DNA of 64,000 nucleotides from positions 3,782,001 to 3,846,000 of the forward strand of contig NZ_CP075185.1 in NCBI RefSeq assembly GCF_020510685.1. The letters are read 5' to 3'. This stretch comes from Dechloromonas denitrificans (GTDB lineage Bacteria; Pseudomonadota; Gammaproteobacteria; Burkholderiales; Rhodocyclaceae). The notes below the pieces were generated by a model. It was not told where the DNA came from and did not search any database. It saw only the letters and a list, made by a program, of their open reading frames with translations. Both the position numbers and the translations under genes were made by a program. Positions 484 to 6,549 of this stretch are shown piece after piece (positions within the stretch are counted from its first letter, which is position 1; every line of letters starts with the position of its first letter).

Positions 484-500
484 TGTAGGTTCTCAAAATT
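484..500 (+). repeat. Left terminal inverted repeat of the element
   Basis: TGTAGGTTCTCAAAATT matches the reverse complement of 6533-6549 at 16 of 17 positions. It is the outermost of several related motifs in the left end. Confidence 0.8.
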
Positions 501-541
501 CGACGAAAATGAACTCGCAGCCATTCAGATACTTATCAAAA

Positions 542-590
542 AATTCTGAGACTAACCCCAACTGCCTTTCTCAATTTCGCTGAAAAATCC
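542..590. repeat. Inner transposase-site-like repeats, left end
   Basis: AATTCTGAGACTAAC at 542-556 repeats the right-end sequence AATTCTGAGAACCTAC in the same orientation. TTTCTCAATTTCGC at 567-580, continuing as TGAAAAATCC, resembles the left terminus (TTCTCA, then AT-rich, then AAAAT). Several imperfect copies in a transposon end usually mark binding sites of the transposase. 464-678 holds no gene. Confidence 0.55.
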
Positions 591-678
591 TAAGCAGGAG
601 GCCCACCATGCTGGGCTTTCGAGAGCTTCGTCTATCTGCCGGGTGAGGTTGTGAGGAGGCCTGGTTAGAAGCAGGCCC

Positions 679-1446
679 CTAGCCTATTGATCCCACAAGA
701 TAGTGCGCATCTTTATGGGCCACGAAATATTCAGCGATCTCGGCAAACAAGGAATTTGCTGCCTCGCTGAACTCCGAGAAAACCTTGGTCGTAACGAAGA
801 TGTCTTCGCCGGCCAACGGCAGCCGCACGGCTTGGGCGATATTCATCTTGGGAAAGTCTCGAAAAAATCCACTTAGGTGTGGATTCTGAAATAGGTCTGG
901 GCGGATAGCGCGCAACTCTACAGCCGATTTTCCTTCGCCGTGTTTCACAGAATTCGCAAGTAGGCGAAGCTGGTTGATCTTCGGCCAGGCGGAAAGATTG
1001 CGTAAATCGAGCCTGAAATTATTGCTGTACCAGTCCGATACCTCATCGAGTTTTGTGTCGCGTGGTGGTGCGATCGAGAAAGCGCCGTCTCGGCACAGAT
1101 CGGCCAACTGCTGTTCAAGCAGATGAAATAGCCCTGCGGCAAACAGGTTCAGGCTAGTTTGACGGATGGCGACCATGGTGTCGTAGAAGATTTGGCCCTT
1201 GTCTTCTGCCGCTTCTGCCGCGATGCTCATGTCGCCATCCCAGTCCTCTCCCGCTGGTTGTTCGCCAAGACGTTTGAATTCGAGATCAGCGATTGCATCG
1301 GCTCTTTCTGACAAATTTGCGAAGACGGGCACAGCATCTTCCATCACGTACCGGCCAAATGCTTTTACATACGGGATAGCCGAGTGGCGTACTCGGTCGG
1401 CCATATAGAGCCCAGTGACTGACATACGGTTGAGGGAGATACCCAT
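679..1446 (-). CDS. Hypothetical protein, possibly HEPN-like
   Basis: 255 residues, soluble, no signal peptide or membrane segment. I do not recognise the family. The stretch LRLLANSVKHGEG at about two-thirds of the length resembles the N-x-x-K-H helix of HEPN-like proteins, a fold used in many RNase toxins and abortive-infection systems; the spacing is not the classical R-X4-6-H, so this is a weak hint. It starts 3 bases after the stop of the 147-residue gene, so the two are co-transcribed and probably translationally coupled. It is the last gene of a minus-strand unit in the left part of the element. Confidence 0.6.
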   Translation of the reverse strand: MGISLNRMSVTGLYMADRVRHSAIPYVKAFGRYVMEDAVPVFANLSERADAIADLEFKRLGEQPAGEDWDGDMSIAAEAAEDKGQIFYDTMVAIRQTSLNLFAAGLFHLLEQQLADLCRDGAFSIAPPRDTKLDEVSDWYSNNFRLDLRNLSAWPKINQLRLLANSVKHGEGKSAVELRAIRPDLFQNPHLSGFFRDFPKMNIAQAVRLPLAGEDIFVTTKVFSEFSEAANSLFAEIAEYFVAHKDAHYLVGSIG

Positions 1447-1449
1447 TAG

Positions 1450-1893
1450 TTACGGGAGTGTGGCTACAAGTTTTTCTGTTTTCAGCCATAACTCGTCAGC
1501 GTTCGGAACTCTGAAATATATGTCTTCGACTCCGCCTCCTGATCCATGAGAAATCTCCCATCGCGTTACAGTTGGCCCCGTGCCAAATGCCGCGCCGCCA
1601 TCTTCCGTGATGCGACTTGCCCCCTGATCTGCTACCGAGACTCCGTAGGCATAAGACAAGCATGGGTGGAATTGAAATTCCTCAATTTTTGATATTGGCA
1701 GAACGGCAACTAGAAGCGAGTGAGAACCGTCGCACTCGGAATGGTCACATTCAAACTCAACCCGGAAATCCGGACACCAGTTATTTACCGGTACAGGGTT
1801 TTTATGCCACTTCCACCCAGCCAGATCAAAGAACGCAGCCCAACGGGCTTCGAGTTGTGTTCTAAATTCCAGCCTCTTGTAAATGGCGGTCAT
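1450..1893 (-). CDS. PD-(D/E)XK-like protein with a degenerate active site
   Basis: 147 residues. The N-terminus (FRTQLEARWAAFFDLAGWKW, then CPDFRVEF) matches the layout I know from small phage and plasmid proteins of PD-(D/E)XK type, where a conserved E-A-R-W helix precedes a P-D-F strand. In those proteins the next strand usually carries V-E-V-K-P; here the corresponding position reads VAVLP, so the expected Glu and Lys are missing. It may be a binding protein rather than an active nuclease. GAGGA eight bases before the ATG supports the start. It precedes the HEPN-like gene by 3 bases. Confidence 0.6.
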   Translation of the reverse strand: MTAIYKRLEFRTQLEARWAAFFDLAGWKWHKNPVPVNNWCPDFRVEFECDHSECDGSHSLLVAVLPISKIEEFQFHPCLSYAYGVSVADQGASRITEDGGAAFGTGPTVTRWEISHGSGGGVEDIYFRVPNADELWLKTEKLVATLP

Positions 1894-1931
1894 AAAAGGG
1901 TTCCTCAGATTCGGTTAATGATGATGTTCAA

Positions 1932-5873: not shown

Positions 5874-6009
5874 TTCGACGTTGCTACTGAATAAGCAGGA
5901 CGGCTCTCAAGTAAATAGACCAACAACACGATTTGTCGTTGATCTCTACATTTGCTGGTCGCTTTGAGTTGAGCCGAGACCGCCGTTATGCCAAAAGGGG
6001 GAATTCAAC

Positions 6010-6339
6010 TTGTACAATAGCTGGACAGTCTGGGTGCAGGGAAAAGTGGCGACCAACTTAGACATTGGGCGCCTGATAGTGGACGACGAATGCTTCGTTT
6101 CTGCGAATACAAAGCTCTGCGATTTCGCCAATTCAGCCTGCCTATCCTCGGAATCCTTGGCCAGGCGTTATTTAGAGGCACTCCTCCCCGTCCTGAAAAA
6201 ACGCTATGGGGACGGTATCCGTCTCTTCGTGTTCGACCGTGGACCGCAGGGACGCCCGGAATTCGACGACCTCTTGGTCACGGCTCGCATTGAGCAGGGG
6301 GTTTTCGCTCCCAACCGTAGACCGAAGGTGCTTCCCTGA
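6010..6339 (+). CDS. Hypothetical small protein (TTG start)
   Basis: 109 residues from a TTG that follows AAAGGGGG with 8 bases between. No signal peptide, membrane segment or recognised motif; the C-terminal part (IRLFVFDRGPQGRPEFDDLL) is a plausible folded segment. It is the last reading frame inside the right end of the element. It may be a real cargo gene or chance; codon use is mixed. Confidence 0.35.
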   Translation: MYNSWTVWVQGKVATNLDIGRLIVDDECFVSANTKLCDFANSACLSSESLARRYLEALLPVLKKRYGDGIRLFVFDRGPQGRPEFDDLLVTARIEQGVFAPNRRPKVLP

Positions 6340-6478
6340 CGAATCTAACCCACTCAAGCGCCTAAAGCAGAATGGTCGGCGGTCATCACCTTTCCGACTA
6401 ACTATTTCTGGCCAGAGCGGAAGATTTGAAGCCTTACCAATATTCCGATAACCGACTTTATTTACTCATGTAAGTGAA

Positions 6479-6510
6479 AAAGGCTCCTTGCGGAGCCTTT
6501 CGGATTTTTA
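6479..6510 (+). terminator. Terminator inside the right end of the element
   Basis: AAAGGCTCC (6479-6487) and GGAGCCTTT (6492-6500) form a 9-bp stem with a TTGC loop, followed by CGGATTTTT. It would stop cargo transcripts before they leave the element. Confidence 0.7.
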
Positions 6511-6525
6511 AAGTACTGAGAATTT
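6502..6525 (-). repeat. Inner transposase-site-like repeat, right end
   Basis: Read on the minus strand it contains TTCTCAGTAC followed by TTTAAAAATCC. It resembles the left-end copy at 567-590 and the terminal repeats. Confidence 0.5.
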
Positions 6526-6532
6526 TTTAAAC

Positions 6533-6549
6533 AATTCTGAGAACCTACA
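6533..6549 (-). repeat. Right terminal inverted repeat of the element
   Basis: AATTCTGAGAACCTACA is the inverted copy of 484-500 with one mismatch (A/G at the thirteenth base). Confidence 0.8.

What the first reader, a model, noticed from the sequence alone, without database searches (positions are those of the whole stretch)
484..6549. Unrecognised 6-kb mobile element with Tn7-like ends and no visible transposase
Three independent marks agree: a 17-bp terminal inverted repeat (one mismatch) beginning TGT and ending ACA, an exact 5-bp duplication ACGCA outside both ends, and additional TTCTCA...AAAAAT copies inside each end. The element carries seven or so frames, none like a DDE transposase, resolvase or integrase. 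It therefore looks like a non-autonomous or mobilised-in-trans cargo element, or a new family whose mobility gene I cannot identify. The match of duplication to inverted ends is unlikely to arise by chance, but I have not run a search.
Basis: partly seen in the sequence, partly recalled or inferred. Interest (0 to 1): 0.85.

Follow-up and report, generated by a model that had tools for sequence, protein, structure and literature searches.

The report
Transposase-less Tn7-like element carrying nuclease-like genes
A 6-kb block between two housekeeping genes is a jumping DNA element that has Tn7-type ends but no transposase of its own; its ends match those of complete transposons that home to the end of the gyrase gene gyrB in related bacteria, so it probably moved by borrowing their machinery.

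Summary
In detail: 17-bp ends TGTAGGTTCTCA(A/G)AATT at 484-500 and 6533-6549, exact ACGCA on both sides, further boxes inside each end; 0 of 40 Markov simulations gave such a pair. In 19 of 29 other same-genus argB loci hsp20 and argB adjoin without an insert. The element holds about eight ORFs (CoiA-like, HEPN-like, HNH-like, unknown) and no TnsABC/TniQ. Complete TnsABC-TniQ transposons with related ends and exact 5-bp duplications sit 3-9 bp behind gyrB in six genomes of the same order. The closest, G514 (38.2 kb), has an end identical to the window's right end at 42 of 48 positions. Three more complete elements lack tns genes and carry Thoeris plus type I R-M (G400), an Mrr nuclease plus a CoiA homologue (G395) or, by eye, redox genes (G674; one atypical end). 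The window genome has a related end behind its own gyrB. Best reading: a non-autonomous Tn7-like satellite, mobilised in trans and inserted off-site. Not shown: mobilisation itself; loss of tns genes after insertion remains possible.

The parts
479..483 (.). Target-site duplication, left copy (ACGCA), 15 bp behind the hsp20 stop codon
484..500 (+). Left terminal inverted repeat TGTAGGTTCTCAAAATT (facing hsp20; less like the gyrB-side ends of relatives than the right end is)
501..590 (.). Left-end array of further TTCTCA-type boxes (533-552, 568-586), putative TnsB-binding sites
   Evidence: box matrix; (I16, D3)
679..1446 (-). 255-aa ORF, all-helical, HEPN-like; 140 homologues at E<=1e-3
   Evidence: PADLOC RTasHEPN E 5.8e-4, PHROG_19541 of unknown function, homologues, AlphaFold model pLDDT 92; PDB fold search gave no confident match
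1450..1893 (-). 147-aa ORF, unknown; resembles a small PD-(D/E)xK-type protein by eye only (recalled resemblance)
   Evidence: PHROG_21138 E 2.4e-6, unknown function
1968..2207 (-). 79-aa ORF, unknown; may not be a gene
2291..3763 (-). 490-aa ORF, unknown; 21 homologues among the 7998 candidates scored
   Evidence: weak Glyoxalase_8 below cut-off
3760..3933 (-). 57-aa ORF, unknown; may not be a gene
4014..4262 (+). 82-aa ORF with an HNH_5-like N-terminus, perhaps truncated
   Evidence: Pfam HNH_5 E 4.7e-5, below its gathering score
4293..5873 (+). 526-aa CoiA-like protein: invariant P314-D315-V316, E334, T336 and near-invariant cysteines; putative PD-(D/E)xK nuclease
   Evidence: 309 homologues among the 7995 candidates scored, alignment of 34, model pLDDT 79; best PDB fold match MspJI endonuclease, not confident; CoiA label recalled
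6010..6339 (+). 109-aa ORF also found beside the 526-aa gene in G393 and G240
6500..6532 (.). Right-end second box (TTCTCAGTACTTTAAAAATCC on the minus strand, 22 bp from the first)
6533..6549 (-). Right terminal inverted repeat TGTAGGTTCTCAGAATT (gyrB-side type; the outer 48 nt are identical at 42 positions to the gyrB-side end of the autonomous element in G514)
6550..6554 (.). Target-site duplication, right copy (ACGCA)

Best explanation
A 6,066-bp non-autonomous Tn7-like element. Its ends are arrays of TnsB-type boxes of the same kind as those of a lineage of TnsABC-TniQ transposons that insert 3-9 bp behind the gyrB stop codon in related bacteria (order Burkholderiales; that name is recalled). 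It encodes no recognisable transposase. TnsA/TnsB of an autonomous relative in the same cell would have recognised its ends, cut it out and, with TnsC and a TniQ-type selector, joined it between hsp20 and argB with a 5-bp duplication. Shown: the ends, the duplication, absence of tns genes, empty sites in relatives, and autonomous and transposase-less relatives with the same type of ends. Inferred: TnsB binding, mobilisation in trans, and use of a target pathway other than gyrB homing. The cargo (CoiA-like and HNH-like nuclease-like proteins, a HEPN-like protein) is probably phage or plasmid defence; this is also inferred.
For: Ends, duplication and chance test. No tns homologue in the element: 31 Tns/TniQ queries give nothing at E<=1e-5 in the window element, G400, G395B or G674A. 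Empty hsp20-argB junctions in 19 of 29 other same-genus loci. Autonomous elements with both ends and exact 5-bp duplications behind gyrB: G514 38,178 bp, G233 30,441, G231 22,092, G109 14,737, G020 13,933, G949 12,776. G514 gyrB-side end against window right end 42 of 48, including 20 of 23 over positions 26-48, which lay outside the 25-nt search pattern. TnsB tree: these six and four more form one supported clade of 10 (96/99), the window genome's resident TnsB outside it, though on a long branch. Complete transposase-less elements with exact duplications: G400 15,650 bp, G395B 8,037 bp (which carries a 36% homologue of the 526-aa protein), G674A 12,064 bp. No TnsB match in the G400 and G674 genomes as held.
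Against: No identical transposase-less element was seen at two different sites, so loss of tns genes after insertion of an autonomous parent is not excluded for any of the four. At E<=1 the 31 queries give scattered weak hits in the element, the best E 6e-4 (105 residues, 25%, TnsB of G233); I take them as chance. The window element is not at gyrB, and its gyrB-side-type end faces argB, not the 3' end of hsp20. A 30-nt gyrB 3'-end matrix does not recognise the hsp20 end (rank 36157 of 127942; best within 40 nt -14.4 bits). A TnsB of the right clade was not found in the window genome; the resident one is 31% identical to G514's and its element has a different end, TGTGGGAACCCCCAATG. G674A's gyrB-side end is atypical (9 of 20 to its other end).
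Confidence: 0.68

Rival explanations
1. Deletion derivative: an autonomous gyrB-type Tn7-like transposon inserted between hsp20 and argB and later lost tnsABC-tniQ by internal deletion; the block is now immobile.
For: Autonomous relatives with the same type of ends exist. G521 shows decay: a TnsB fragment of 45% identity with a stop inside, 8.4 kb from its gyrB-side end. No TnsB of the right clade found in the host.
Against: No convincing tns relic in the 6 kb, and ORFs cover 5255 of 6066 bp. Four complete elements in four genomes lack tns genes and differ in cargo. All four keep exact 5-bp duplications; the two ends of each agree over 20 nt at 16 (window), 17 (G395B), 14 (G400) and 9 (G674A) positions.
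Confidence: 0.27
2. The block was mobilised by the TnsABC-TniQ element resident in the same genome (G000:3488229-3493920).
For: It is a complete TnsA, TnsB, TniB-type TnsC and TniQ set in the same chromosome.
Against: Its likely left end, TGTGGGAACCCCCAATGTTTGCAATCC with four boxes at 21-23 bp, is unlike TGTAGGTTCTCAGAATT. Its TnsB falls outside the clade of 10 (long branch, so this placement is less sure). Its right end was not found, so this end rests on the box array alone.
Confidence: 0.04
3. Not an element: chance inverted ends around a region acquired by homologous recombination or another route.
For: The hsp20-argB spacer is variable in the genus.
Against: Chance test, empty sites, same type of ends with exact duplications around unrelated blocks in other genomes.
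Confidence: 0.01

Closest known systems
Tn7-like transposons with TnsA, TnsB, TniB-type TnsC and TniQ (PMC8649781 and PMC10293859; passages seen)
   Same: TGT/ACA ends, 5-bp duplication, arrays of about 20-bp boxes at 21-22 bp spacing, cargo of defence type in relatives, homing of relatives to the 3' end of a conserved gene
   Different: No transposase, TnsC or TniQ inside; inserted away from the lineage's usual site; a survey that starts from tnsB (PMC8649781) would not see it
Tn6677 TnsB and TnsC (solved structures)
   Same: Closest solved relatives of the presumed helper by sequence: G514 TnsB against Tn6677 TnsB E 1.2e-53, TnsC E 3e-28
   Different: Tn6677 is a CRISPR-associated transposon (recalled); the relatives here sit behind gyrB, and Cas genes were not looked for
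Miniature and other non-autonomous transposons (MITEs; recalled)
   Same: Ends without transposase, presumed mobilisation in trans
   Different: 6-16 kb with multi-gene cargo instead of a short non-coding stretch
Phage satellites (PICI, P4; recalled)
   Same: Analogy only: cargo-carrying parasite of another element's mobility machinery
   Different: The helper would be a transposon, not a phage; no integrase was recognised in the element

Membership tests
Tn7-like transposon (autonomous) | TGT...ACA ends and 5-bp target duplication | tested here: met
Tn7-like transposon (autonomous) | Arrays of TnsB-type boxes inside both ends | tested here: met
   By sequence only; binding not tested
Tn7-like transposon (autonomous) | tnsB, tnsA, tnsC genes | tested here: not met
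Tn7-like transposon (autonomous) | TniQ/TnsD target selector | tested here: not met
   No TniQ in Pfam or by tblastn at E<=1e-5
gyrB-homing Tn7-like lineage | Insertion behind gyrB | tested here: not met
   Window element lies between hsp20 and argB; gyrB matrix does not fit the site. A separate related end lies behind the host's gyrB
gyrB-homing Tn7-like lineage | Ends of the TGTAGGTTCTCA box type | tested here: met
   42 of 48 to G514
Non-autonomous Tn7-like element | Cognate-looking ends plus duplication, no tns genes | tested here: met
Non-autonomous Tn7-like element | Movement by a helper TnsABC | not testable with these tools
   Needs a transposition assay
Integrative (conjugative or mobilisable) element | Integrase, relaxase | tested here: not met
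   No such Pfam or NCBIfam match among eight ORFs

The most novel reading that the evidence does not exclude
Bacteria of this order carry a class of transposase-free satellite elements (6-16 kb) that keep Tn7-like ends, collect defence genes (Thoeris, restriction-modification, CoiA-like nucleases) and move, often to the gyrB 3' end and sometimes elsewhere, by borrowing TnsABC-TniQ from autonomous gyrB-homing transposons. Array order at gyrB (newcomers at +3 to +6, older ones then standing at +10; two arrays seen) would record successive landings of helpers and satellites.
Probability: 0.5. Interest if true: 0.72.

Novelty: new variant of a known kind. Interest (0 to 1): 0.6.

Why it matters
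The large survey of Tn7-like transposons whose passages I saw (PMC8649781) starts from tnsB, so transposase-less members are invisible to it and their cargo stays unassigned. The end signature and the gyrB 3' site found here give a direct way to find such islands and their helpers. If trans mobilisation is confirmed, defence genes travel on transposon satellites as they do on phage satellites (the latter recalled). In the papers held here I found no mention of gyrB as a Tn7-like attachment site: searches; 'gyrB' has 0 occurrences in PMC10293859, PMC8649781 and PMC11406308 and is only a phylogenetic marker in PMC12452197. The other two papers listed were not opened. Searches for non-autonomous Tn7-like elements gave six listings, none opened, and none whose title or abstract start points to this. 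Preprints and most subscription papers are not held.

Tried and rejected
Resident TnsABC as helper: judged unlikely, because its likely end differs and its TnsB lies outside the clade, on a long branch.

hsp20 3' end as a gyrB mimic: it shares GAACATCGA with several gyrB 3' ends (seen by eye), but the 30-nt matrix gives no support, and the element is the other way round.

Matches to the end pattern judged to be chance or undecided and left out of the argument: G183 (L005), G189 (L007/L010), G074 (L008, about 82 kb from its gyrB), G399 (L082), and G398 (L113, a 3.5-kb pair without a matching 5-bp duplication). Of 52 stretches from the genome-contig scan only 13 were printed and six of these followed up; the other 39 were not examined. 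That scan used a mis-built pattern (ATN for TTN) which the window itself does not match; the six betaproteobacterial hits were useful by luck.

G546 (L130): two ends 5 bp apart, partners not found; left unexplained. Distal ends were not found for G521, G432, G640, G038, G855, G939, G396, G397, G270, G240, G031, G032, G399, G074 or the end behind gyrB in G000 (looser look at six of them), some because contigs or fetched stretches end.

No plasmid DNA match to the element. No viral contig with its 490-aa gene or the two-box end. PDB fold searches of two cargo models were not confident. Plasmids hold distant TnsB relatives (1488 records, all under 60% identity) and 8 records with relatives of the 526-aa protein; ends there were not looked for. 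The transposase-less relatives were searched for Tns/TniQ proteins only, not for other kinds of transposase.

Full report
OBSERVATION. The ends at 484-500 and 6533-6549 agree at 16 of 17 positions, ACGCA lies outside both, and more TTCTCA-type boxes lie inside each end. One such pair exists in the window, and none in 40 first-order Markov simulations of it. The 17-mer occurs nowhere else in the genome at up to 1 mismatch. GC of the element is 0.55, of the 483 bp to its left 0.55, and of the 57 kb to its right 0.62.

EMPTY SITE. Searching argB in 40 same-genus genomes gave a match in 38, the window's own included. Loci were held for the 30 best matches, one of them the window's own. In 19 of the other 29, hsp20 lies directly before argB with no insert; in the remaining 10 no hsp20 was found on the fetched stretch, which reaches 1.5 kb upstream. 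Alignment of the 19 with the joined window flanks shows the terminator region and argB start aligned, and a short spacer that varies too much to read the ancestral ACGCA.

CONTENT. Eight ORFs cover 5255 of 6066 bp. None is a transposase, integrase, resolvase or relaxase by Pfam or NCBIfam. The 526-aa protein belongs to a large family (309 hits among 7995 candidates scored) with invariant PD...E.T residues and conserved cysteines, which I recall as CoiA-like. Its model is fair (pLDDT 79) and its best PDB match, the MspJI endonuclease, is not confident. The 255-aa protein is all-helical, with a weak HEPN-type match in PADLOC. The 2.1-kb module holding the 526-aa and 109-aa genes is 88.7% identical in G393, same genus. 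There it lies in a stretch that also encodes TnsA, an AAA-type TnsC, a large TnsB-like protein (no Pfam match; 23% to the resident TnsB) and two TniQ proteins. TGTNGGTTCTCA ends were not found there, so the module seems to change vehicles.

RELATIVES WITH SUCH ENDS. Four searches by end sequence were used: 5 of 199 family genomes; 52 stretches in genome contigs, of which 13 were printed and six betaproteobacterial ones proved end-like; 7 of 399 genomes of the family of G400, with 0 reversed-pattern controls; and 5 of 399 of the order, with 0 controls (G876 there is the same genome as G514, 1000 nt identical). Together these name 20 genomes. In 11 of the 20 (G038, G396, G397, G400, G432, G514, G521, G640, G855, G939, G949) the matched end lies 2-10 bp behind the gyrB stop codon. 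In two more (G395, G674) it belongs to a tandem array at gyrB. The other seven are the window genome (hsp20-argB), G546 (no gyrB on the 45 kb fetched), G398, and four probable chance or undecided matches (G183, G189, G074, G399).

HELPERS. With G514's TnsB as query, 66 of 395 genomes of the window's family match at E<=1e-20; eight stand out at 37-44% identity. I fetched the surroundings of these eight and of four at 30-33%. gyrB was on the fetched stretch in seven of the 12. Behind it, within 11 bp, stood a TGTAGG end in five (G109, G020, G270, G231, G233) and a TGTAG end of another kind in G074; G208 had none within 40 nt. Both ends with an exact 5-bp duplication were found for G514 (38,178 bp, GATGT), G233 (30,441, GAGAT), G231 (22,092, AACTA), G109 (14,737, GATGT), G020 (13,933, GATGT) and G949 (12,776, TGCTT), with TnsABC and TniQ inside. 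End sequences differ within the lineage: G514, G233 and G949 have TTCTCA...TGAAA-type boxes, G109, G020 and G231 have T(C/T)TAGATTT-type boxes. The TnsB proteins of these six and of four more (G270, G031, G032, G081) form a clade with support 96/99, to the exclusion of the window genome's resident TnsB; the program warns that the resident TnsB is a long branch whose place is unsure. G514's TnsB and TnsC are nearest to Tn6677's among solved structures. The window's right end matches G514's gyrB-side end at 42 of 48 positions, the best of 19 ends compared. Positions 26-48, which were not in the pattern that found G514, agree at 20 of 23.

TRANSPOSASE-LESS RELATIVES. G400 (a Limnohabitans MAG): 15,650 bp, GATGT on both sides, behind gyrB, carrying ThsA and ThsB of Thoeris, a type I restriction-modification set and an RtcR-type regulator. 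G395 (Hydrogenophaga palleronii): 8,037 bp, TTTGT on both sides, carrying an Mrr-type nuclease and a 36% homologue of the window's 526-aa protein. G674: 12,064 bp, GAGCT on both sides, behind gyrB, with genes that look by eye like redox and two-component genes (no family search was made); its gyrB-side end is the least typical, TGTAGTAATTCTGAG. None has a Tns/TniQ homologue at E<=1e-5. In one search, 9 of 18 genomes had a TnsB match; G400, G674, G546, G640, G396, G397, G398, G038 and G189 had none, several of them incomplete assemblies.

ARRAYS. In G395 the order is gyrB stop, 6 bp, a 29,085-bp element of another end type with its own TnsB, CCGAT, four more bases, then the 8-kb element. Without the first element the 8-kb element would stand 10 bp behind the gyrB stop. 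In G674 the second end likewise stands 10 bp behind the stop once the first element is subtracted. This suggests repeated landing at one site.

THE HOST'S OWN gyrB. Two bp behind the stop codon stands TGTAGGTTCTCGTTTGAGTCTGGATTT, followed by a D12-class DNA adenine methyltransferase and a DndB/DpdB-like gene; no distal end was found. The window genome therefore seems to hold a remnant of a related element at the usual site.

MECHANISM. From the established Tn7 scheme (TnsB binds end boxes, TnsA and TnsB excise, TnsC and a TniQ-type selector choose the target) the simplest account is that a G514-type helper moved this element. Its landing between hsp20 and argB is outside the gyrB pathway; a gyrB 3'-end matrix gives no support to a mimic. 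G514 has a second TniQ-related gene of 344 aa beside the 608-aa one (its TniQ match is below the Pfam cut-off), so a second pathway is possible but unproven. The main rival is loss of tns genes after insertion, which the data do not exclude.

NOVELTY. Papers seen: passages of PMC10293859, PMC8649781, PMC11406308 and PMC12452197; all others as search listings only. None of these passages mentions gyrB as an attachment site. PMC8649781 defines elements starting from tnsB, so it would not list this kind. I rate it a new variant of a known kind.

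Noticed in passing
G000:C1:5225 (L251:725): Family-like transposon end 2 bp behind the host's gyrB stop, followed by a D12 DNA adenine methyltransferase and a DndB/DpdB-like gene; no distal end found
   Followed up: partly
G000:C1:3484469-3493920 (L038, L039): A resident TnsA-TnsB-TniB-TniQ element whose likely left end with four boxes lies 29 bp behind an ORF that looks like nrdJ by eye; right end not found
   Followed up: partly
L031 (G393): Same cargo module (526 aa plus 109 aa, 88.7% DNA identity) in a different Tn7-like setting with two TniQ genes
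   Followed up: partly
L112 and L256 (G395); L132 (G674); L229 and L242 (G032): Tandem arrays of different Tn7-like elements behind gyrB (in G032 only back-to-back ends were seen); other end types (G395, G399, G074) use the same site
   Followed up: partly
L130:19420-19560 (G546): A gyrB-side-type and a distal-type end back to back with 5 bp (TGTGC) between them, no gyrB on the 45 kb fetched: tandem copies, or the junction of a circular form
   Followed up: partly
L113:8457-11968 (G398): 3.5-kb block with inverted TGTCGGTTCTCACATGAAATGCTATT ends but no matching 5-bp duplication; ORFs look XRE-like and ParB-like by eye
   Followed up: no
window 54588-54604: Isolated TGTTTATTCTCAGAATT (3 mismatches to the end) in a stretch of low GC (53500-55150: 0.46 against 0.61 for the window)
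   Followed up: no
L128:9157-9456 (G521): Decayed TnsB fragment (45% identity, stop inside) in the gyrB element: an autonomous member losing its transposase
   Followed up: no
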